NCBI GenBank assembly: GCA_018716365.1
Contig: DVKA01000017.1
Location: 1-12,572 of the forward strand
Direction: 5' to 3'
Source of the DNA: Candidatus Caccocola faecipullorum
GTDB taxonomy: Bacteria > Synergistota > Synergistia > Synergistales > Synergistaceae
Length of the DNA: 12,572 nucleotides
Shown here: positions 130 through 12,572 of the stretch, one piece after another
How positions within the stretch are numbered: position 1 is the first letter of the stretch
How the letters are laid out: each line of letters opens with the position of its first letter
The notes under the pieces: model-generated
Databases searched by the model: none
What the model was told of the DNA's origin: nothing
Seen by the model: the letters and a program-made list of their open reading frames with translations, nothing else
Program-made: the position numbers and the translations under genes

Positions 130-178
130 CACCTTCACACGGTGGAAGTCGTTGGTTCGAACCCAATATCGCCCACCA
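130..178 (+). other. tRNA-Val(CAC) 3'-half fragment, attachment-site core
   Basis: The sequence folds as the 3' part of a tRNA. It has anticodon stem CACC (130-133) pairing with GGTG (141-144), anticodon loop TTCACAC (134-140, anticodon CAC at 136-138), variable loop AAGTC, T-arm GTTGG/TTCGAAC/CCAAT (151-167), 3' acceptor strand ATCGCCC (168-174), discriminator A and encoded CCA (176-178). No D-arm or GGGCGAT 5' acceptor strand precedes it, so this is not a working tRNA gene. A tRNA 3' half beside phage genes is the classic footprint of a tyrosine-integrase attachment site. Confidence 0.85.
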
Positions 179-188
179 TTGCTATCAC

Positions 189-2503: not shown

Positions 2504-2527
2504 ATTTCTTGGAAGGATGTGACAGCT

Positions 2528-2770
2528 ATGATGGTGAACACGGATAATCTTATTTCCATAACCGAAGCGAATCAGAATTTCTCGAAGGTCGCGAGGATGG
2601 TCGATGAAAAAGGCGCGGCGGTCATTCTAAAGAACAACGTGCCGCGCTATATCGTCATAGAGTTCAGCCGGGCGGAACAGGCGCAGGAAGCCGACGACGA
2701 GGACGTTATGAGCATCTCAAAACGCCTGATAGAGCAAAACCGCGAAGCTTACGAGGTCCTCGCCAAGTGA
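2528..2770 (+). CDS. phd: Phd/YefM-family antitoxin
   Basis: This 80-aa acidic protein neutralises the Doc-type toxin next to it and probably represses their shared promoter. Residues about 1-55 fit the Phd/YefM DNA-binding fold: SITEANQNFSKVARMV, then a GAAVILKNNVPRYIVI strand-turn-strand. The acidic C-terminus (EADDEDVMSISKRLIEQNRE) would wrap the toxin. I chose ATG 2528 because GGAAGGA ends about 10 nt upstream; the GTG at 2519 is too close to that site. The stop overlaps the toxin start by 4 bp (GTGA), so the two are translationally coupled. It reads against all surrounding phage genes. Confidence 0.85.
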   Translation: MMVNTDNLISITEANQNFSKVARMVDEKGAAVILKNNVPRYIVIEFSRAEQAQEADDEDVMSISKRLIEQNREAYEVLAK

Positions 2771-3144
2771 AGACGCTAAGCAAGCGGCAGATACTCTCCC
2801 TGCACGACCACCTTATAGCCGAGACCGGCGGACAGGCTGGACTGCGCGACGATGGGCTTCTTGAGTCAGCCCTAGCCGCGCCATTCGCCGCCTTCGGTTC
2901 TGAAGAGCTATATCCGACGCTCGTGCAGAAGGCGGCGCGCCTCGGATACGGCCTAGTCAAAAACCACGCCTTCATCGACGGCAACAAACGCATAGCTGCG
3001 CACGCGACGCTCGTATTCCTCGCCGTCAACGGTGTCGAGCTGCGATACACACAGCAGGAGCTCTCCGATATATTCCTAAAGCTTGCAGCGGACGAAGCAC
3101 GGTACGAAGACCTGCTGGTATGGATAAAGGAGCACGACGCATAA
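2767..3144 (+). CDS. doc: Doc/Fic-family toxin (death on curing)
   Basis: This 125-aa toxin has the Fic-fold active-site loop HAFIDGNKR at residues 67-75 (His67, Asp71, Asn73, Lys74, Arg75). In the Doc branch the usual Fic 'GNG' becomes 'xNK'. P1 Doc phosphorylates EF-Tu and blocks translation, and the same activity is likely here. The N-terminal LHDHLIAETGG...LRDDGLLESAL motif and overall length match Doc. The start is GTG at 2767, inside the antitoxin stop codon. A terminator follows at 3165. The intact loop suggests an active enzyme. The pair sits between lysis and tail genes as an independent accessory unit. Confidence 0.9.
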   Translation: MKTLSKRQILSLHDHLIAETGGQAGLRDDGLLESALAAPFAAFGSEELYPTLVQKAARLGYGLVKNHAFIDGNKRIAAHATLVFLAVNGVELRYTQQELSDIFLKLAADEARYEDLLVWIKEHDA

Positions 3145-3363: not shown

Positions 3364-3912
3364 CTACGCCGTTTCCGTCACTTCCGTCCACTGCCACAAC
3401 CCCTCGGTGTCCGGAGGCCAGACGCAGGCGGGCATGTCGGTTTCTGCTTTATAAAGTTTATCGTTGTAGCTGTAGTATTTGCCTCCTTCGACGTCCATAC
3501 CGTTAAGGTACGGTATCGGGTCGTCCTGCGTGCCTGTGGGCGTTGTGCCCGTTTCCGGGTCTGTCGAGAGCGGACGGTAGACGGCGAGCATGCCCTCGGC
3601 GCTTGGCGGCTGGTGTTCCTGCGCCGTTACGCCGCCCGATGATACTACTTCGTAGACTATACCTTCGTGCTGGATTCGGCGGCCCTGCGGGTATGTCTCG
3701 CCGACCGTCCAGACGGGGAAGAGTTCTGCCTTGGCGAGGAGTGAGAACTCGGCGGAGGTGAAGCTCATTGTCTGGACGAGATTCGCACGGGATTTCTGGG
3801 CGAGTACCGCTTCGGCTTCGGCTTTGGCCTCCGCCTGTTCCTGTGCATCAGCTTCAGCCTGCTTCATGGCGACTGTTTTGACCTTCGTCCAGTCGATGTT
3901 ACTGCTGCTCAT
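3364..3912 (-). CDS. Tail-associated protein with chitin-binding-like modules
   Basis: This 182-aa protein probably sits on or near the tail and binds surface glycans. An Ala/Glu/Gln-rich helical segment (about 12-45) is followed by two modules with the aromatic pattern of CBM5/12 chitin-binding domains: VGETYPQGRRIQHEGIVYEV (about 70-89) and GGKYYSYNDKLYKAETDMPA with W-P-P and W-Q-W further on (about 142-180). Such proteins are common in phage tail regions. It overlaps the upstream 121-aa gene by 14 bp and has a GAGGTG ribosome site, so the two are co-expressed. Function is inferred from module resemblance and position. Confidence 0.65.
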   Translation of the reverse strand: MSSSNIDWTKVKTVAMKQAEADAQEQAEAKAEAEAVLAQKSRANLVQTMSFTSAEFSLLAKAELFPVWTVGETYPQGRRIQHEGIVYEVVSSGGVTAQEHQPPSAEGMLAVYRPLSTDPETGTTPTGTQDDPIPYLNGMDVEGGKYYSYNDKLYKAETDMPACVWPPDTEGLWQWTEVTETA

Positions 3913-4264
3913 TGTTCTGCACCTCGCTTTCTATTTGCGCCGTGGTCGCTGCGCCCGTCAGCGTCACAGGGCCGTCCGTGTCAATAACCAGAGGATTCGG
4001 GTTCGGATAGCGGACGGATTGGTCTGCGCCATAAGAGTACGGCAGGCGCAGGTTAAGCGTGATATAACCGTTCTCACGGGTCACGTCGCCGCTTATATAC
4101 TCGCTCGCCACAGACGGCTCGTTGCTTGAGTTCATAAGCGTCTCGCCTTCCTGAAGCTGTGAGAAATCGAAAGCCTCTCCGTTTATCGTAAGCACGTCGC
4201 CCTGTGCGGAGACTACAGGCGGCGTAAGCTCAGACCTTATTGGGCTGAGGGTTATCTTGAACAT
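3899..4264 (-). CDS. Conserved phage tail-region protein, unknown function
   Basis: This 121-aa protein begins MFKITLSPIRSELTPPVVSAQGDVLTINGEAFDFSQL. That opening is familiar from small phage proteins encoded just upstream of tail accessory genes; I have no firm function for it. It has no signal peptide or membrane segment and looks beta-rich, with a Gln/Glu-rich tail. The ATG at 4264 has AAGGAG about 9 nt upstream. Its position between the switchable fibre gene and the chitin-binding-like protein suggests a tail assembly or accessory role. Confidence 0.6.
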   Translation of the reverse strand: MFKITLSPIRSELTPPVVSAQGDVLTINGEAFDFSQLQEGETLMNSSNEPSVASEYISGDVTRENGYITLNLRLPYSYGADQSVRYPNPNPLVIDTDGPVTLTGAATTAQIESEVQNNEQQ

Positions 4265-4407
4265 AAAATCAACTCCTTACACATACGTTACACAGGCACG
4301 CGACACGAATCAGGTGCGCGCCTGTGGGGTCAAATTTGGGTGTTATTAATACTGTTATACGATTGTTACACACTGCGGCGTGAGACCATTTGCGTCCCGT
4401 CCTGTCC
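4265..4407. other. Intergenic boundary left of the silent fibre cassette
   Basis: I see no gene. The stretch holds the ribosome site of the leftward 121-aa gene (4268-4278). It also holds an imperfect 10-bp hairpin (4293-4302 with 4315-4324, one mismatch, 12-nt loop) without a T-tract. An open frame leading into the silent cassette begins at 4340 but has no ribosome site, and its first 23 codons do not match the fibre N-terminus. The hairpin could act on the leftward transcript. Confidence 0.4.
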
Positions 4408-4429
4408 GCGCATCGTTGGTGCGCTGTCC
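4408..4429 (+). repeat. Putative inversion site, left copy
   Basis: A 22-bp element beginning GCGCATCGTTGGTGC and ending CTGTCC matches 21 of 22 bases of the element at 5138-5159 in inverted orientation. It contains GCGCA/TGCGC arms around a 7-bp centre. Homology stops abruptly on its left. It lies exactly at the junction of the constant and variable halves of the fibre protein, where a site-specific invertase would act. Confidence 0.7.
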
Positions 4430-4768
4430 GATGGGCATATCATTGAGTCCGGGGATAATGCCAATGGGTATTACGTGCGGTTCGCGGATGGGACGCAGGT
4501 GTGCTGGGGCCGTAAAAGTGTAAATGTTACTACTCAATCACAGAATGAGACATATTACATGGTAGTATATGGCACGTATCCAGCATCATTTATAGGGGAG
4601 ACAGCGTGCTTCGTCTCTGCGGATTACCCAGACGGTTCTGGAATTGTCGCCGCATGTAATTGCCAATACACGGGAACGGCAGAATGGCGAGCGCACTATA
4701 TGCCGCATAAGGCCGTCAGCTCGCGGACAATTATTTTTAGATTCCTCGCCATCGGCCGCTGGAAGTAG
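4408..4768 (+). pseudogene. Silent alternative C-terminal cassette of the tail fibre
   Basis: This open frame encodes 119 residues homologous to the C-terminal half of the adjacent fibre gene, in the opposite orientation. It starts RIVGALSDGHIIESGDNANG and ends LAIGRWK; the active copy has RIVGALSQGYIIESGDNANG and LAIGKWK. The middle 80 or so residues are quite different. The frame can be extended upstream to 4340, giving 142 aa, but that extension has no ribosome site and no match to the fibre N-terminus. It is therefore best read as a promoterless spare tip. It converges tail-to-tail with the active gene with 9 bp between the stop codons. Inversion between the two 22-bp sites would join it in frame to the constant N-terminus. 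Confidence 0.75.
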
Positions 4769-4798
4769 CAGCGGCGGCTATTTCCATTTGCCGATGGC
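4748..4798. repeat. Inverted repeat at the facing cassette ends
   Basis: GCCATCGGC (4748-4756) and GCCGATGGC (4790-4798) are exact inverted copies. Both encode the shared 'AIG' near the C-terminus of each facing fibre cassette. The pair can form a hairpin across both stop codons and may help terminate transcription. It is probably a by-product of the two homologous gene ends facing each other. Confidence 0.6.
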
Positions 4799-5305
4799 TA
4801 ATATATTCAAGTGTACCGGAACAGTTGTAGCATCCATTACTCGATAATAATGGACATGTGGGGTCATCGATAAAAAAGCATCTGAAGCGACATCTCCAAA
4901 TGTCACATATCCTCTTGCATCAGAGCCAACCTGTTCTGTCATAGCTCCCAATATAGCGGGACGGCTGGAAAATTCTGCCGGGTAAACAAACGTCCCCAGA
5001 GAAGCATAAGCTATAGGAGAGCTAATATTAGTGCAAGTAATTGACAAGTCTTTACTTATAATACATATCTGTGTCCCATTAGCAAACCTAACGTAATACC
5101 CGTTAGCGTTATCCCCAGACTCAATAATATAGCCTTGGGACAGTGCACCAACGATGCGCAGCACCCCTGCTGGTATTTTATTGTCCGCGTCGAGCAGCGG
5201 CAGCTTCAGCAGCTTTTCGAGCGCGGCTCCCGTGTTTTTATTAAGCGTCAGAATCTGTATCAGAGCCTGCGCCGTCTGTTCCGTCGTCTGAAGTTCCGTC
5301 GTCAT
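4778..5305 (-). CDS. Short tail fibre/tip protein with switchable C-terminus (active form)
   Basis: This 175-aa receptor-binding candidate has two parts. Residues 1-49 are a helical constant region (TTEQTAQALIQILTLNKN...LLDADNKIPAGVL) that would attach to the fibre. Residues 50-175 are a variable tip starting RIVGALSQGYIIESGDNANG, a sequence type common at the C-terminus of phage tail proteins, and ending LAIGKWK. The tip is visibly AT-richer than the constant part and neighbouring genes, suggesting separate origin. An inverted homologous tip cassette lies directly downstream. The ATG at 5305 has GGAGGAG 7-8 nt upstream. Its first 65 bp overlap the end of the upstream gene in another frame. 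Confidence 0.8.
   Translation of the reverse strand: MTTELQTTEQTAQALIQILTLNKNTGAALEKLLKLPLLDADNKIPAGVLRIVGALSQGYIIESGDNANGYYVRFANGTQICIISKDLSITCTNISSPIAYASLGTFVYPAEFSSRPAILGAMTEQVGSDARGYVTFGDVASDAFLSMTPHVHYYRVMDATTVPVHLNILAIGKWK
5138..5159 (-). repeat. Putative inversion site, right copy
   Basis: This is the - strand partner of the 22-bp element at 4408-4429, differing at one base. It lies at codons 50-56 of the active fibre gene, where the constant region ends. Beyond it the two copies share only 57 of 75 bases (hand count), nearly all differences being synonymous. The 22 bp are therefore conserved beyond what coding alone would require. Confidence 0.7.
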
Positions 5306-5609: not shown

Positions 5610-6716
5610 TTATCCTATGGTGAATATAAGCTCGCCTGCATCGTTCAGCGACACGCCGGTGACGCTCGCGCCCTGCGGCCCCGTATCTCCAGTTTCACCT
5701 TTAAGCGCTGCAAGCTGTTCGGAGGTAAAGTCCTCGTATGTGAATGGGTCTCCTTTATCTCCTTTGTCTCCCTTGTCGCCTTTAGGAATAGTGAAGTCGA
5801 GTATCGCGTCTCCCGCGGTTCCGCTGTTGACTACGGCGGCCTGCGTTCCGGCGGCTCCCGTGGTTACAGTGCCGACGGCTATCGTGGCCGCGTCGCCTTT
5901 GGAGGCGATAACAGTCCACACGGCTCCCTCTTCCGGCGCTGTCCCTGTAGTGACCTCCTGTCCTATGTGAAGCCACCACGAACCGTTATACTTAACGCAG
6001 TCGTAAAATGAATACTGCGCTCCCTCCGAGTAAGCACCCTTAAAAACAATGCGCCCCCTGCCAAGGTTTATCTTCGGTTCGTCGCCGGTATAGATGTAGA
6101 CGCATCCGTCGTCGGCGATTTTTATATCGTCCGTCCCGGCGTCGCCGTAGTAGTCAACTACGAGACAGCCGTCGTCGTCGATGCGGAAACGACCGAAAGA
6201 GTAGGGGATATATTCCTGCGCGTGGACGCGCGACTCCTCGGCCCATGCTTTCGCCTCGTCCCGTGCGGCCTTCGCAGCGTTCAGAGCGTCGATCAGAGCC
6301 TGATATGCCTCGCCGGAATCCACCTGCTCCACAGTGCCGACAACCGCGCGCGACAGGTTCTCGACAATCTGCTGAATCATCATGACGACGAGGTCGAACT
6401 GCATTTCAATCGTCTTTGCGAAGAATTCGCCCTGATTCTCCAGCACCGTCGATTGGATCACCGGCACGACGCGCATGAGAATGATCTGGTCCTCCGCGGA
6501 AAGCGGCGGCTCGCCCGTCCCTTCGGGCGGATAAGTCACCGTCTTTTCCTGTTCGTTCAGCACATATCCCCTTTCAAGAAGCGCGGACTCCTCGTCCCCG
6601 CGCTTCACCCACACCTGAAGGTGCGACGCGTCGTACAAAAGAAACGTATACGGCCACACCCTCGTCACGCCGTTGCCGGCGTAAATATGCTTGTTCACGT
6701 CGCTTGGCACCGTCAC
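5610..6716 (-). CDS. Tail fibre protein, T7 gp17-like N-terminus with collagen-like repeats
   Basis: This 368-aa fibre probably anchors to a short podovirus tail. Residues about 8-130 ([18 protein letters not shown]...[18 protein letters not shown]...[12 protein letters not shown]) match the T7 tail-fibre N-terminal domain that binds the tail tube. A helical Ala-rich stretch follows (about 135-165), then a beta region with a CBM-like module (about 224-272, [17 protein letters not shown]...WTVIASKGD). Next are [11 protein letters not shown]..., a collagen-like GDK run (312-323) and [10 protein letters not shown] (340-349), which would trimerise. It lacks a large receptor-binding tip, so the downstream short fibre with the switchable C-terminus may be that tip. 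The start is GTG at 6716 with AGGAAAGGGG upstream; an in-frame GTG at 6710 is also possible. Confidence 0.85.
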
Positions 6717-6780: not shown

Positions 6781-9700
6781 TTATTCATCCCTCGGTTTGA
6801 AGCCGCTTCCGAGCACCAGATAGGCCCACGGTATGGCCTCGTCCTCGTCGTACCACGCCCAGAAAGCCTTCGCCGCCTGTATCATCTTGCGGTTCGGCAC
6901 GCCGTAGCGGTAGCCCGCGACCGTCGCCGCGCCTTCCGCTATGTCGCCCCATTCGATGTCCTCTCCGCTGAGCGCGTTGCCGCCCTGCTTATAGGCTATC
7001 TTCACGAGCCGCGCCACGCTGTCGAGAGCGCCCTGCGCCGGCGTGAGCTGAACTCCGTATTTGAAGCCGCCGCTTACGACGTTGCTTATCTCTCTCGCTA
7101 TCGGCACAGTAGTGAACGGCGACAGCGCCACCCTCGCCGTCGTCCACTTCGCCCAGCTCCATATGCGGCTTTCGTCGTCTTCCGGTTCCGGCCCGCCGCC
7201 GCGAAGCAGCGCTTCCGCAACGCTCTGCGCTACAAGGATATAGAAGGCGTAGCTCGCTAGGTCCTTCACGCGGTTTATGCCGTGCTCGTACTTCACGCGC
7301 ATGATCGCCTCGTTCTGCATCTGGTACATGACACGGAACCACGAATAGAACATCGTCGTCAGCTGCCCAATAGGCCCGGAACGCTCAAATGTCGAAAGGT
7401 CCGCTATCGTAGAGGCGCTCTGCGTCTGACGTATGACCGAATCCGCGTAAGCGACCGCCTTCGCCTCGTCACCGTAGCGTTTAAGCCCTATCTTGTAGCA
7501 CTGCACCCAGCCCGGCACATTGCACATATTCTGGAACAGCGGATAGACGGATAGGAAGAAATCCGCGGCGCGCGAAATGCCGTGGTCGTTCGTCGTCCAG
7601 TTCTGCCGCAGCTTGCGCACCTCGGCGTTCCCCTCGTCCATCTGCTCGCGCATAAAGGCCGACTTCTCGCGCGCGAAGGCGTAAGTCCTCGTATTCGGAT
7701 TCAGCCCCTCGGCGATAGCCAAAGCCGTATTGACGAAGCCTATCCTGTGAGCGAGCGCGAAATAGCCCAGCGGCTGCATAAGCGCGCCGCCTATATTGCC
7801 GCCCAGCGCGAACATCGCCGTCTTGCTCTTGATACCGTTTATTATCCTGTCGCCCGAGCCGGAGGCCACGCCGTTGTTCTTCGTGTTCGCCGCGATGTCG
7901 TTCAGCCATTTTCCGAAATTCCTGTATCCCCTGTCGCCGTAGACCGTCGTTATGACGCTCTTTATGGTATCGCGCCGCAGAATCTTCCATGCGTCGCGGA
8001 TTACCGGCGCCATCTCGTAGTCGTGTATGACGTTCGCGACATGGTTGTCCAGCACGGAGAACGAAAGCAGCGGCGGCCGCCCCAGCACGTTCTCCGCCCT
8101 CGCCTTGCGGTGTCCGCTCTTCGTATGCTTATCCAGGAAATTGCATGGCGCGGAGGCCATGACCTCCTGCCGCTCGTTCTGCGCGGCCGCAGTCTCCGAA
8201 TAGCGCAGGTCGGTCACGATGGGATAATACCCGCCGCGATAAGTGCCGTACTCCGTGACGACCGGCTTCGCCTCGACCTTCTCGATAGTCGTCCCCGTCA
8301 TAAGCTCGTGGACCTTCTTTATCTTCGGCCACATAGTATCAAGCAGGTCCCAGACGCCCTGGACATATTCCCAGTCCTCCCGCGACATCTTCGCCTTAAT
8401 CTTCTCGATGTCCGCGTCAGTCCAGCCCCAGCCGTCTTTCAGGCGCGCGAGGTTGTCAGCGTTGCCCATGTTGAGCGCCGCGCAGATGATATTCTCCTGC
8501 GTGAAAAGGCTCATCTTCTTCGTCGGGACGTGGAACACCTTGCCCGTCTCCCGGTCGGTAACGCGCTTGTACTCGCAGACGCCGATGTCCTTCGGCTTCA
8601 TGTCCGCCTTGAAATCCGAGCCGTAGACGCGCAGCTTGAGGTTACGGAACTCACCGAACATCCGGTTCAGCTCCGCATACTCGCGGCTCACAGCCTCACG
8701 CACGGGACGGAAAAAATAATCCTGCATCGGCCCGTCGTCCTCAAATCCGTCCAGCCAGCGGCACATCGCCTCTATAGTGTTCAGGTCGAGCAGCACGTCC
8801 GCAGCGGCGTTCGGGTCCTTGCGCGCAACCTCGATATGCGCATCGCCGTCTATCTTGTCCTTGCCGAATTTACTCTGAGAACGTTCAAGCACGGCTGCGT
8901 CGATTCCGGCAAGCTCAATATTCTTCTGGCGCGCAATGGTCTTCTTCTCGTCGCGCCCCGCCTGCATGATATTCTGGACGGCCTTGAAAGCGCTCTCAAG
9001 CTGATGCACGAAAAGCCCCTCGTACTTCATCTGAGTGATGCTCTGTGCTATCCACTCCGGCATGAGCAGCGGCACGCCCGCCTCCGCCTGCTCCTTTATG
9101 AAATCTGAAAGTGATTTCGCCTCTTGGAGAATGTCCTTCGGCGTAAGCGCCTCGACCTCTTTCTTAGTCCGTTTGGTGAAGTCGAACCTCGTCAGCAGCA
9201 TATCGAGCTGGTACAGAAATCTCGGGTCCATGCCGAAGGTCTGCTTCTGCTTGCGCTTCGCATATCTGGCCATACGCGAGCGTATATACTCGACGTTGCG
9301 CCGCGCGCGGTACATCGCGCGTATCGTCTCGTGGGCGTAAAGCTCTCGCCGCCTTGCCTCGCGGAAAGCCTCTTCGTCGAAATTCCGCAGGGCTTTGTCC
9401 GCCGCTGCTCGTGAATCCTTCTCGACGCGCACCCAGCCCGTTACGTTATAAAGCTCTTGGATTTTCATGCCTGTGACTTTGTTCCGTGCGTTCAGTTTTG
9501 CTATTTCAAGAGTATTACGTCTGTTTTCTCTGTTATAAACCTGCCTTGTAAGGCTCCTGAGATAACGTCCTGATGTTCGCATGGAGAGCTCTCTATTCTT
9601 CTCCTCAATGAAAGAGATACGCCGCCGCTCGTCCATCCTCTTATATTTCTCTTCAAGTTCTGTCTTTCGTTTCTGATACCTTGCGCGTATCTCTTTGCGT

Positions 9701-12572
9701 AGCGCAACGGCCTTGTCGTGGCTTTCCTGTATCTGTGCTTTCAGCCGTTCTGCGGCGGCATTGTAACGGGCTTTCGCCTTGCCGGTTTTCTCTTCCGCTT
9801 TGGCCTCTATCCTTTTTATCCTCTCCGCGTTGCGCGCGGCGCGGCGCTCCTGCCCAGCGACGTGCTTTTTATAGCGTTCGCGGTATTCGTCCATCACCTC
9901 GCGCCGCCCCTCTTCACGTGCAAGGTCGAGCGGCGATTCCAGCACAGCCTCGGACATAAGCAGGTTGAAAAGCCCCGTCTCGCCGCCTACATGTATCCCC
10001 ATACCGTCGAGCTCCTGCGCTATGTCGTCAAGGCCGCGCCCCTCTTTTGAGAAAAACGACGGCCCGTAGCGTTTCAGCAGAGCCTGCGCGTCCTCCTGCC
10101 CAATCTCGCGCGCGACAAATGAGTATCGCGGCCGCCCGTGCGCGCGCATCCACTTGACGACGTTCGTCCGAGACGCGGGGTCTTCGTTTTCGACACGCGC
10201 CGCCTCGTCGGCCTCGAATATCGCGCGGAACTCGGCTTCGGCCTCCTCCTCGCGCGCCGCGAGTTCGAGAGCCTCGTCGAAGTTCGCTTCCGTCTCCGCG
10301 GCAAGCCGCTCGCCGTGCTCCTCGCTCTCGTAAAGCGCAGCCTCCGCCGCCGCGTCCATAGCGGCGGGAGACGAAAGAGTATCCGTAAACTCACGCGCGA
10401 CGATCTCGCGCACGCGCGCGTCCACCTCTTCTTTTATCGACCGCCGTCCGGCGATCGCGTCTATCATCTCCTTCGCGCTGTTGAAGTTGAGGCTGCGCGC
10501 CGCAGTCTCAAGGTCTGCCATGCCGTCAGCGGCAAGACTGCCCTCCGGCATCGCGGAAAGCACCGTTTCGCTGAACATATCCATCACGGCCTCGGGATTG
10601 AGCTTCAGCTCTGGTTCTTCCTCCATCATTGCGAGCGCCCTGTACCCGGGTTCTGCGAGAACTGCGCGGAGCACCTGCGGGCGTATCTCCTCGGCGCGCT
10701 CCGCCATCTCTCGCCGCCGCTCCGGCGTGTCCTCGGAGAATAGTATGCCCAGCACGTTTTCCTTCGCCGCTTCAAAAGGATCGCCGTCAAACTCGTAATC
10801 CGGTTCGGCCTCTAGCGCCGGCGCGAAAGCCGCGTTCGCTTCGTCCGCTTCGCGCTCCTCCGCATCCGCCGCCTCGCGCCGCGCCGCGATGAGCGCGTCG
10901 GTCTCGCGTTCCGCGCGCAGCTGTTCCACAGCCTCGTCTGCCGCGACCATGCGGCCGAACACGCTGCGCACATCGTCGGACAACTCAACGTCGAGCTCCG
11001 TCAGCGTCCTGTAAATATCGCAGAGCCATTTCTTGAAACGCCGGAAAACGGCAAGCAGCTCGCGCGACGGCACCGGAGCCCTGCCCTCCATGAGATAGCG
11101 CTCGAAGCCGCGCGCGAAATACTCCTGCGCCGCGCGGTCGTAGGCCGCCCCGACTGAGCTCCTGCGCTCCATGCCGGAAGCGAGCCAAGCGCGGAACCCC
11201 TCTGCGGAAAGCCCGCCGCGATCGCCCTCAGGAACAAACTGCGCCGCCTGGCGCGCGATGTCCTCCGCGTTCTCCTCCCACCAGCGCGAGACAACTTTCA
11301 AATCCCTGTTCCACTCGGCCTCGGGCCCGTCCCACGCCGCTCTGTTCTGCGCCGTGTCGAGCGAAGCCAGATTCCGCAGATGCCAGAAATACAGATGCGC
11401 GAACTCATGCACGAAGGTAGAACGGTCTGCATCCTTCCCAAGCCGGATAGTAACCGGCGCACCCTCGTACTGAGGGAACGTGATAGAGCCGCGCGAGCCT
11501 GCGCCGCTGATCTGATAAAGCTGCAAATTGCCGCCGTCTCCGTCTTGTCTTATAATATTGCCGGAAGCTCCTTCTGCAGCTCGGCTAGTACCCGCCGCGG
11601 AGGCAAGACCGATGTTACCGGAGGGGGATTCTTCCTTGAAAGCTCCTTCCGAAGCTCGGCCGGCAGCCGCCGCGGAGGCAGCCCCGACGATACCGGAGGG
11701 AGCTTCTTCGTCCGCTTTATTCAGTCTGCTTATATCGTAATGCCACATCCCGTCGGTATGCTTTTCAAGAGAGAGCCGCACATTGTAAAGCCTTGGAATG
11801 CTGTCGCCGGAACGCCTTATGTAAACGGTGTTATCTAAGTAGCAGTATGCGAGAATATCCGCCTCGCCGCTCTTCCTCTTCTCCGCCATTACAGGAAACT
11901 CGACGCCGCCGTCGTTATTTTCTACGAGTTTTCCGCTCTCAATCAGTTCCCTCAGATAAGGGACGAGATACAGCTTTTCTTTGTCGTTCCTTCTGATAAA
12001 AGTACTCTCAACACCGCCTCTTCTCGAAAAACGCACCTCGCCCAAAACCGGATGAACGGCGGGCGGATTTTTCTGATTGCCTTCTGCGTCCAGCGTCTGG
12101 AGATTTTCGCGATACCATTCAAGAGCTTTCTTTCTCAGCGCCTTCATCTCATCTTTTTTAGAAACGTCAAACGCGCCGAGCAGTGTAGTATCAACGGGAA
12201 TAGGATTGTTATTCACAGGCGCGGCCTGATAATACGTCTCGGCGATATTCACGTCCGCATCGTCGAAAACAACATAGTTATAACTGCCCTCGCCCGCGCG
12301 CCTGCTGTTCCCGTCGAGATACTTGATTCCAAGCACCCCCGCCTCTTTGAGCAGGAGGCTCGCCTCTTTATCAGAATGTAATTTATGCGCCAGACTCCTA
12401 TATAAACTTCCTCCTTTTCTGCTTCCATATGTCATCTTATTCAAAAAACGTTCTCCCGACATATCGGTTATGGAGAACTTATCTTTGTTCGCGTCAAGCC
12501 ATGCAATGTCTTTCTGTATTGATGAATCTATGTCTTCGCCAGATTCTACATAGGAAAGCAATTCCTTCTTTG
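6781..12572 (-). CDS. Giant polyvalent virion protein (ART, BECR nuclease, zincin, coiled coil), 5'-partial
   Basis: The gene runs off the right edge: the frame stays open past TTG 12561, so the true start lies outside and at least 1,929 residues are encoded here. Numbering from Leu/TTG 12561, residues about 40-110 (GIKYLDGNSRR...YNYVVFDDADV) look like the end of an ART-PolyVal ADP-ribosyltransferase domain. Residues 165-285 (VRFSRRG...LVPYLRELIESG...YCYLDNTVYI...YNVRLSLE) resemble the barnase/EndoU/colicin/RelE-type nuclease of polyvalent proteins. HEFAH (385-389), with QEYFARGFERYL near 480, is a zincin metallopeptidase. A very long charged coiled coil spans about 870-1105. The C-terminus, with several hydrophobic helices, resembles LPD-type phage virion proteins. 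Polyvalent proteins are proposed to be injected with phage DNA and to act on host defences. Domain names rest on motif recognition. Confidence 0.85.
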   Translation of the reverse strand, partial: KKELLSYVESGEDIDSSIQKDIAWLDANKDKFSITDMSGERFLNKMTYGSRKGGSLYRSLAHKLHSDKEASLLLKEAGVLGIKYLDGNSRRAGEGSYNYVVFDDADVNIAETYYQAAPVNNNPIPVDTTLLGAFDVSKKDEMKALRKKALEWYRENLQTLDAEGNQKNPPAVHPVLGEVRFSRRGGVESTFIRRNDKEKLYLVPYLRELIESGKLVENNDGGVEFPVMAEKRKSGEADILAYCYLDNTVYIRRSGDSIPRLYNVRLSLEKHTDGMWHYDISRLNKADEEAPSGIVGAASAAAAGRASEGAFKEESPSGNIGLASAAGTSRAAEGASGNIIRQDGDGGNLQLYQISGAGSRGSITFPQYEGAPVTIRLGKDADRSTFVHEFAHLYFWHLRNLASLDTAQNRAAWDGPEAEWNRDLKVVSRWWEENAEDIARQAAQFVPEGDRGGLSAEGFRAWLASGMERRSSVGAAYDRAAQEYFARGFERYLMEGRAPVPSRELLAVFRRFKKWLCDIYRTLTELDVELSDDVRSVFGRMVAADEAVEQLRAERETDALIAARREAADAEEREADEANAAFAPALEAEPDYEFDGDPFEAAKENVLGILFSEDTPERRREMAERAEEIRPQVLRAVLAEPGYRALAMMEEEPELKLNPEAVMDMFSETVLSAMPEGSLAADGMADLETAARSLNFNSAKEMIDAIAGRRSIKEEVDARVREIVAREFTDTLSSPAAMDAAAEAALYESEEHGERLAAETEANFDEALELAAREEEAEAEFRAIFEADEAARVENEDPASRTNVVKWMRAHGRPRYSFVAREIGQEDAQALLKRYGPSFFSKEGRGLDDIAQELDGMGIHVGGETGLFNLLMSEAVLESPLDLAREEGRREVMDEYRERYKKHVAGQERRAARNAERIKRIEAKAEEKTGKAKARYNAAAERLKAQIQESHDKAVALRKEIRARYQKRKTELEEKYKRMDERRRISFIEEKNRELSMRTSGRYLRSLTRQVYNRENRRNTLEIAKLNARNKVTGMKIQELYNVTGWVRVEKDSRAAADKALRNFDEEAFREARRRELYAHETIRAMYRARRNVEYIRSRMARYAKRKQKQTFGMDPRFLYQLDMLLTRFDFTKRTKKEVEALTPKDILQEAKSLSDFIKEQAEAGVPLLMPEWIAQSITQMKYEGLFVHQLESAFKAVQNIMQAGRDEKKTIARQKNIELAGIDAAVLERSQSKFGKDKIDGDAHIEVARKDPNAAADVLLDLNTIEAMCRWLDGFEDDGPMQDYFFRPVREAVSREYAELNRMFGEFRNLKLRVYGSDFKADMKPKDIGVCEYKRVTDRETGKVFHVPTKKMSLFTQENIICAALNMGNADNLARLKDGWGWTDADIEKIKAKMSREDWEYVQGVWDLLDTMWPKIKKVHELMTGTTIEKVEAKPVVTEYGTYRGGYYPIVTDLRYSETAAAQNERQEVMASAPCNFLDKHTKSGHRKARAENVLGRPPLLSFSVLDNHVANVIHDYEMAPVIRDAWKILRRDTIKSVITTVYGDRGYRNFGKWLNDIAANTKNNGVASGSGDRIINGIKSKTAMFALGGNIGGALMQPLGYFALAHRIGFVNTALAIAEGLNPNTRTYAFAREKSAFMREQMDEGNAEVRKLRQNWTTNDHGISRAADFFLSVYPLFQNMCNVPGWVQCYKIGLKRYGDEAKAVAYADSVIRQTQSASTIADLSTFERSGPIGQLTTMFYSWFRVMYQMQNEAIMRVKYEHGINRVKDLASYAFYILVAQSVAEALLRGGGPEPEDDESRIWSWAKWTTARVALSPFTTVPIAREISNVVSGGFKYGVQLTPAQGALDSVARLVKIAYKQGGNALSGEDIEWGDIAEGAATVAGYRYGVPNRKMIQAAKAFWAWYDEDEAIPWAYLVLGSGFKPRDE
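11567..11716 (-). repeat. Two 75-bp tandem repeats within the giant gene
   Basis: Imperfect direct copies at 11567-11641 and 11642-11716 encode two 25-residue Ala/Gly/Ser units (PSGNIGLASAAGTSRAAEGA and PSGIVGAASAAAAGRASEGA). They lie between the nuclease-like and zincin-like domains and look like a flexible linker. A whole-codon period means copy-number change would keep the frame. Confidence 0.8.

What the first reader, a model, noticed from the sequence alone, without database searches (positions are those of the whole stretch)
4408..5305. Invertible tail-fibre tip: a phase-variation switch
The fibre gene at 4778-5305 (-) has a homologous but divergent C-terminal cassette on the opposite strand (4408-4768, +), tail to tail. 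The junction residues (RIVGALS...ESGDNANGYYVRF) and the end (LAIG[KR]WK) are shared while the middle differs. The spare cassette lacks a fibre N-terminus and ribosome site. Recombination at the inverted 22-bp sites would join it in frame to the constant 49 residues. This matches the logic of Mu G-segment and P1 C-segment host-range switches (established knowledge). Its occurrence here is inference from the sequence.
Basis: partly seen in the sequence, partly recalled or inferred. Interest (0 to 1): 0.88.

Follow-up and report, generated by a model that had tools for sequence, protein, structure and literature searches.

The report
Flippable phage tail-fibre tip, recombinase elsewhere
A bacterial virus carries two alternative tips for its attachment fibre, back to back in its DNA, and a related pair is found flipped in two related viruses, so flipping that stretch very likely swaps which tip is made.

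Summary
The expressed tip gene (5305-4778, -) and the silent tip (4409-4768, +) lie tail to tail inside a 96-nt inverted repeat (81%). The same anatomy recurs at six loci in four genomes of two genera. Two prophages in one single-contig genome carry the same 715-bp pair in opposite orientations (86.7%, minus), beside a downstream flank in the same orientation (89.7%, 1,830 bp); breakpoints coincide with a 13-bp core, RCATCGTNGGTGC. Among 73 tip proteins, 8 of 14 cassette clusters at 75% identity hold both expressed and silent members. The core occurs 13 times in the four genomes, 11 at switch arms. The tip profile matches an F2-pyocin side fibre. Unlike Mu and P1, no invertase lies beside the switch; in the two prophages delimited, the only serine- or tyrosine-recombinase hit is the integrase, so the enzyme probably acts in trans. 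Some exchanges look homologous rather than site-specific. Inversion of the window's own pair was not observed. New variant of a known kind.

The parts
5159..5305 (-). constant head of the expressed tip gene (residues 1-49)
   Evidence: this head type is found in 9 of 49 expressed-position proteins, no two of them in one cassette cluster at 40% identity
5145..5157 (-). crossover core, expressed side (GCATCGTTGGTGC)
4778..5144 (-). expressed variable tip cassette with stop
   Evidence: (phrog_2712 tail fiber protein, 1.3e-22)
4409..4768 (+). silent tip cassette (open frame, no fibre head)
   Evidence: phrog_2712, 2.8e-22; model pLDDT 85.9
4410..4422 (+). crossover core, silent side (GCATCGTTGGTGC)
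4408..4503 (+). left arm of the outer inverted repeat (partner 5064-5159), 81%
5064..5159 (-). right arm of the outer inverted repeat
4748..4798 (.). tail-to-tail junction, itself an 80% inverted repeat; its counterpart in G012a/G012b is found in both orientations
4265..4408 (+). flank outside the silent arm, not fibre-coding; over 24 nt it is 38-46% identical to the silent-side flanks of the other five loci and 21-42% to the six head flanks, so only weakly conserved
3899..4264 (-). conserved gene downstream of the switch (phrog_2398, unknown function)
5610..6716 (-). tail/fibre gene with a collagen-like part, upstream of the tip gene
   Evidence: phrog_1640 tail protein, 1.2e-21; collagen-like adhesin model, 0.0002, far below its cut-off

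Best explanation
It is an invertible segment of about 750 bp in a temperate phage. A constant 49-residue fibre head can be joined to either of two receptor-binding tips that lie tail to tail. Recombination between inverted cores (RCATCGTNGGTGC) at the head/tip boundary flips the segment and exchanges expressed and silent tip. Shown: anatomy, recurrence in six loci, both orientations in relatives, breakpoints at the core, the same cassettes in expressed and silent positions. Inferred: that the window's own pair flips, that the flip changes adsorption, and that a site-specific recombinase encoded elsewhere (host or another element) does it. My sub-estimates: inversion switch 0.9; crossover site-specific at the core rather than ordinary homologous exchange in the arms 0.65; recombinase supplied in trans, given site-specific, 0.7.
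For: Six loci with the same anatomy in four genomes, two genera. G012 loci a and b: 715 bp between the cores at 86.7% in minus orientation, downstream flank 1,830 bp at 89.7% in plus orientation; 65 identical bases run across the tail-to-tail junction in inverted orientation. Affinity switches at the core: upstream 24 nt, expressed-expressed 0.50-0.96, silent-silent 0.38-0.83, expressed-silent 0.08-0.42; downstream 78 nt, G012a expressed vs G013 silent 0.94, and G012a expressed vs G012b silent 0.79 against 0.67 for G012b expressed. The same cassettes sit in both positions in 8 of 14 clusters at 75% identity, against 6.5 expected under free mixing. Core codons ATC..GGT in 11 of 11 intact arms, against 16% (19 of 116 Ile) and 26% (35 of 136 Gly) elsewhere in the same frames (my subtraction); the combination is kept in 1 of 7 paralogous tips without a spare. 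11 of 13 genomic core sites are at switch arms, reversed-pattern control 0. Position N of the core is the same in both arms of each of 5 intact loci and differs between some loci (T, C, C, C, A). dN and dS of 0.045/0.143 and 0.127/0.280 for two cassette types, each compared between one expressed and one silent copy. Tip profile hits an F2-pyocin side fibre at 1.6e-12; R1-pyocin fibre is the top fold match for both models, at E 0.0022 and 0.0015.
Against: No reads, and no inverted copy of the window's own pair: the best-scoring protein to the silent cassette is 47% identical, and the highest identity over at least 90% of it is 49%. In window, C24 and C25 the ends are position-specific (expressed ..GKWK, silent ..GRWK), as if fixed. 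Several expressed/silent cassette pairs at 77-94% identity differ in the first codons after the core (P0028/P0031, P0030/P0017, P0026/P0054), so some exchanges probably crossed inside the arms, which fits homologous recombination. Upstream, the heads of G012a and G012b are only weakly alike (58% over 24 nt), so the same-orientation evidence on that side is weak. The silent copy of G012b is decayed and its core is degenerate, so that switch may be locked. No recombinase was identified.
Confidence: 0.82

Rival explanations
1. Ordinary homologous (RecA or phage annealase) recombination between the roughly 90-nt arms and among coinfecting phages shuffles tip cassettes; there is no dedicated site-specific switch.
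For: G012a's prophage encodes a RecT annealase. First codons after the core often differ between copies of one cassette. Nine different cassettes follow the window-type head, more than a two-state switch gives. The outer 37 nt of the C24 arms are 92% alike. Genus-wide homologous exchange of tail fibres is described for Pectobacterium tailocins (PMC13195805: title and abstract start, passages).
Against: In both DNA comparisons available (G012a/G012b and G012a/G013) the arm travels with its cassette out to the core. Whole arms are only 72-82% alike. Core codons are constrained beyond the protein. No RecT among the 25 of 26 Pfam families shown for the 27 G012b ORFs scanned.
Confidence: 0.28
2. 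A fixed arrangement: the opposite-strand copy is a relic or a recombination donor, and the two orientations arose by rare rearrangements.
For: G012b silent copy has an in-frame stop and a degenerate core. Window, C24 and C25 keep position-specific ends.
Against: Five of six silent cassettes are open. dN below dS across expressed/silent pairs. Cassettes are spread over both positions about as in free mixing. The window's silent cassette gives a confident fold.
Confidence: 0.08
3. The phage's own tyrosine integrase also inverts the tip segment.
For: It is the only PF00239 or PF00589 hit inside the G012a and G012b prophages as I delimited them. Dyad symmetry of the core is centred on a base, suggesting an odd-length overlap as in many tyrosine recombinases (3 of 2,000 column shuffles reach it; the inference on overlap is recalled knowledge). 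Window core and att-like tRNA fragment share TCGTTGGT (by eye).
Against: The integrases of G012a and G012b give no BLASTP hit to each other at 1e-10, yet their switches share the core. The tRNAs at the ends of G012a (Thr) and G012b (Pro) do not contain the core.
Confidence: 0.1
4. Diversity-generating retroelement target rather than inversion.
For: Variable C-terminal receptor-binding domain.
Against: No reverse transcriptase (PF00078) hit in G000 or G001; the hits in G012 and G013 lie outside the switch regions. Variation is whole-cassette with an opposite-strand spare.
Confidence: 0.01

Closest known systems
Mu G / P1 C / e14 P invertible tail-fibre segments (Gin, Cin, Pin serine invertases; general features recalled; e14/PinQ passages read in PMC12529663)
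   Same: Constant N-terminus, alternative C-termini on opposite strands, inverted sites at the boundary. e14 StfE2 carries a gp53-like, R1-pyocin-related C-terminal domain, and R1-pyocin fibre is the top fold match here. PinQ acts in trans on another prophage.
   Different: No adjacent invertase; segment of about 0.75 kb against 1.8 kb in e14; no assembly gene inside; core dyad is odd-centred.
Second bifidophage inversion locus, 689b-1 / Bb423phi2 (PMC6109161, passages)
   Same: About 500-bp inversion involving a gene's 3' end, short site (8 bp), no recombinase flanking; the authors suggest an invertase in trans. Closest precedent found.
   Different: Bifidobacterial phages, genes without identified function, different site; here tip identity, six loci in two genera and cassettes mixed over both positions.
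Rin shufflon of bifidophages (PMC6109161, passages) and Min of p15B (named there)
   Same: Receptor-binding C-termini exchanged behind a constant N-terminus; short crossover site (11 bp in Rin).
   Different: More than two cassettes and an adjacent recombinase in Rin; here two and none.
Carotovoricin tail-fibre inversion with Ein (PMC13195805, passages)
   Same: Tail-fibre tips exchanged by inversion plus homologous recombination across a genus.
   Different: Tailocin; the ein invertase belongs to the locus (present in 172 of 365).

Membership tests
Mu G / P1 C type invertible tail-fibre system | Alternative C-terminal cassettes on opposite strands, one in frame with a constant head | tested here: met
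   six loci
Mu G / P1 C type invertible tail-fibre system | Inverted crossover sites at the constant/variable boundary | tested here: met
Mu G / P1 C type invertible tail-fibre system | Both orientations of one pair exist in nature | tested here: met
   G012a vs G012b, (relatives; not shown for the window's own pair)
Mu G / P1 C type invertible tail-fibre system | Adjacent phage-encoded serine invertase of the Gin/Cin family | tested here: not met
   PF00239: the one G000 hit is on another contig; no G012 or G013 hit lies near a switch. In G001 the one hit is on C12; the prophages around C24 and C25 are not assembled, so there only the 4-kb contigs were seen
Mu G / P1 C type invertible tail-fibre system | Site of about 26 bp with an even, 2-bp centre | tested here: inconclusive
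   best dyad is on a base (odd centre); crossover bases not mapped
Mu G / P1 C type invertible tail-fibre system | Recombinational enhancer bound by Fis | not tested
   no call
Mu G / P1 C type invertible tail-fibre system | Tail-fibre assembly gene carried inside the segment | tested here: not met
   only the two tips lie between the cores
Rin/Min shufflon | Three or more cassettes separated by sites, adjacent recombinase | tested here: not met
   two cassettes; exact core only at the two ends of each intact locus
Diversity-generating retroelement | Reverse transcriptase near a variable repeat | tested here: not met

The most novel reading that the evidence does not exclude
A two-slot tip exchange system open to a shared pool: the silent slot is the acquisition port, where new tips arrive by homologous exchange without interrupting fibre function, and a host-encoded recombinase then flips them into expression. 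Candidates are the 196-aa serine recombinase, whose relatives of at least 75% identity occur in 6 of 52 family genomes including all 4 with the switch, or the tyrosine recombinase of about 190 aa seen in 3 of the 4. The bacterium would then supply the enzyme that sets its phages' receptor choice.
Probability: 0.27. Interest if true: 0.75.

Novelty: new variant of a known kind. Interest (0 to 1): 0.52.

Why it matters
Tail-tip switches are textbook biology in enterobacterial phages, where the invertase sits next to the switch (recalled). Here one is found in two genera of another family, with no recombinase seen beside it and with the same cassettes spread over expressed and silent slots about as random mixing predicts. 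That makes a concrete question testable: who flips phage tips when the phage does not bring a dedicated invertase? It also gives a searchable 13-bp signature and a natural library of tip domains behind one head.

Tried and rejected
Integrase as invertase: prompted by an 8-nt match between the window core and a tRNA-like fragment at 130-179. The G012a and G012b prophages end at different tRNAs without the core, and their integrases give no hit to each other at 1e-10, so the idea was dropped to a minor rival.

Piv/IS110-like invertase: no PF02371 hit in G000 and G001; the hits in G012 and G013 lie away from the switches. Retroelement.

Core-like sites next to the serine recombinase gene: only weak matches with two mismatches in an 11-base pattern, in G000 and G012, none in G001 or G013.

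All 160 have a tip hit; only L229 has a convergent pair within 400 bp, and it is 100% identical to the G012b locus over 9,207 bp. Of 49 loci, 48 have a tip hit and none a convergent pair. Loci cut by contig ends were not removed.

Viral-contig scans with the window, G012a and C25 tips alone gave no relatives. Phage records gave 35, none covering 80% of the query.

Association of the serine recombinase with the switch is confounded by kinship: 4 of 4 switch genomes hold a relative of at least 75% identity, and 6 of 52 genomes do in all, but these are 2 switch genera among 4 genera. The tyrosine recombinase was not surveyed across the family.

Full report
What is there. The genes are phage tail and lysis genes, mostly on the minus strand. 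The tip gene 5305-4778 (-) and an opposite-strand cassette ending at 4768 (+) are tail to tail. The outer inverted repeat is 4408-4503 / 5064-5159, 96 nt, 81%. Homology starts abruptly: the flanks upstream of the core in the two arms are 21% identical over 24 nt. Both cassettes match phrog_2712, tail fiber protein, at 1.3e-22 and 2.8e-22.

Same anatomy elsewhere. The one other genome held for the genus, G001, has two loci (contigs C24 and C25) with an expressed tip and an opposite-strand tip. In the family, 5 of 52 genomes have tip hits. Convergent pairs were found in four of them: window, G001 C24 and C25, G012 a and b, G013, that is six loci in two genera. The fifth, G045, has tip hits but no core within two mismatches at its tips in the stretches fetched; one of its tips lies 28 bases from a contig end, so a spare could be missing there.

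Both orientations. G012 is held as one contig and carries two prophages with the switch. Turned so that the expressed tips point the same way, locus a and locus b align in plus orientation downstream (89.7%, 1,830 bp) and in minus orientation between the cores (86.7%, 715 bp). The heads upstream align in plus orientation only weakly (58% over 24 nt; short BLAST pieces). The alignment of the inverted segment runs from core to core and includes 65 identical bases across the tail-to-tail junction. The expressed cassette of G012a and the silent cassette of G013 match at 92.7% over 386 bp, minus. So the pair, including its asymmetric junction, is found flipped relative to its flank.

Where it crosses over. 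Upstream of the core, sequences resemble each other by position (expressed-expressed 0.50-0.96; silent-silent 0.38-0.83; expressed-silent 0.08-0.42). Downstream, the G012 and G013 arms resemble each other by cassette. The core is RCATCGTNGGTGC. N is T in the window, A in G013 and C in C24, C25 and G012a, the same in both arms of each of these five intact loci. The codons ATC and GGT are used in 11 of 11 intact arms; elsewhere in the same eleven reading frames ATC is 19 of 116 Ile codons and GGT 35 of 136 Gly codons (counts, arms subtracted). Of seven paralogous tips without a spare, one keeps ATC GTN GGT. In the four genomes the core occurs 13 times, 11 at switch arms and 2 elsewhere; the reversed pattern does not occur. 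Dyad symmetry is best centred on the T of the core; 0.15% of 2,000 column shuffles reach it.

The population view. Searching about 5.8 billion proteins with the silent and the expressed cassette gave 36 and 62 proteins, 69 distinct. With the eleven loci proteins, 73 could be placed: 49 with a fibre head, 24 with a silent-side leader. Seven were dropped before the count: P0037, a near copy of the window's own protein, and six without the junction motif I used. Position was judged from the protein alone, without DNA. At 75% identity of the variable part there are 14 clusters with more than one member, and 8 hold both positions (6.5 expected under free mixing, 2,000 shuffles). At 60% it is 8 of 15 (7.0 expected), at 40% 9 of 19 (10.5 expected). 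Nine proteins, the window's among them, share the window-type head, no two in one cluster at 40%. Ends other than ..WK (such as ..RWKA or ..RWKE) occur in 9 of 49 expressed and 8 of 24 silent proteins. dN/dS is 0.31 and 0.45 for two cassettes, each compared between an expressed and a silent copy. Against a purely site-specific picture, P0028/P0031, P0030/P0017 and P0026/P0054 differ in the codons just inside the core although the variable parts are 77-94% identical, so homologous exchange in the arms probably also happens.

What the tips are. A profile of 67 tip proteins matches the C-terminal part of F2-pyocin side fibre 25ve (1.6e-12) and 9cod (1.7e-8). The silent cassette is modelled at pLDDT 85.9, an all-strand domain; the expressed gene at 72.7 overall, its tip better than its head. 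Fold searches put R1-pyocin fibre 6cl5 first for both, with snail agglutinins also listed; no match reaches E 0.001. A receptor-binding role is therefore inference from homologues.

Which enzyme. No recombinase hit lies in the window: the PF00239 and PF00589 hits of G000 are all on other contigs. From repeats of tRNA ends I place the G012a prophage at about 529.9-586.3 kb (a 16-base repeat, weak) and G012b at about 2,262.9-2,303.1 kb (a 40-base repeat). Inside each, the only hit to those two families is the integrase, and the two integrases give no BLASTP hit to each other at 1e-10. Among 29 G012a ORFs scanned one is RecT. For G012b 27 ORFs were scanned against Pfam, 25 of 26 families shown, with no second recombinase named; not every ORF of either prophage was scanned this way. 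Host candidates: a 196-aa serine recombinase (best PDB match 2r0q, named Tn552 DNA-invertase bin3, with Sin, gamma-delta resolvase and DNA-invertase chains also listed; NCBIfam best match Mpi master invertase at 6e-14 but 52 bits against a cut-off of 272), with relatives of at least 75% identity in 6 of 52 genomes, all four switch genomes among them; and a tyrosine recombinase of about 190 aa, 76-83% identical between G001, G012 and G013, with two copies in G001 and no open frame of that size among the six hits of the incomplete G000. Neither is tied to the switch by more than co-occurrence.

Literature. Eight searches of the held open-access library ran. None of the papers listed describes, by its title or abstract start, a tail-fibre inversion in these bacteria; the lists were cut (15 of 64, 12 of 22, 12 of 91), and subscription papers are mostly not held. 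PMC6109161 (passages) describes Rin and a recombinase-less inversion of about 500 bp in bifidophages and suggests an invertase in trans, the closest precedent. PMC12529663 (passages) shows a recombinase of one prophage flipping a tail-fibre segment of another. PMC13195805 (passages) describes Ein and homologous exchange. Mu and P1 details are recalled.

Judgement. It works like Mu G / P1 C but is not a member: the adjacent serine invertase and the assembly gene inside the segment were tested and not met. New variant of a known kind, moderate interest.

Noticed in passing
window 2519-3144 (+): Phd-like antitoxin (PF02604, 7.9e-6, below its cut-off) followed by a Fic/Doc-family gene (PF02661, 1.9e-19), on the strand opposite to the neighbouring phage genes: a likely toxin-antitoxin pair.
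   Followed up: no
window 130-179 (+): Looks like the 3' half of a tRNA gene ending in CCA (my reading; ARAGORN finds no tRNA in the window, Rfam nothing in 1-400), possibly an attachment-site copy next to the lysis genes.
   Followed up: partly
window 6781-12561 (-): 1,926-aa reading frame matching phrog_9880 (4e-174, unknown function); it holds a repeated 70-bp stretch, 11565-11634 / 11640-11709, 81%.
   Followed up: no
L112 16207-16569 (G012b): Silent cassette with an in-frame stop and a degenerate core: a switch that may be locked.
   Followed up: partly
L065 and L066 (G001 contigs C24, C25): Two small contigs with similar ends (84% and 96%) but four different tip cassettes, plus a further tip paralogue at one end: probably two related prophages broken in assembly.
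   Followed up: partly
L117 6320-7629 (G013): Two frames that look like an IS3-type transposase (my reading, no family search) between tip paralogues downstream of the switch.
   Followed up: no
L067 5416-6003 (G000 C149), L319-L321: 196-aa serine recombinase, 79% identical in two genera; beside a deoA-like gene (my reading) in G000 and G001, but with no shared neighbour found in the stretches of G012 and G013.
   Followed up: partly
L071, L073 (G001), L137 (G012), L135 (G013): Tyrosine recombinase of about 190 aa, 76-83% identical between genera, two copies in G001; no core-like site within two mismatches in these loci except one at L135 2865.
   Followed up: partly
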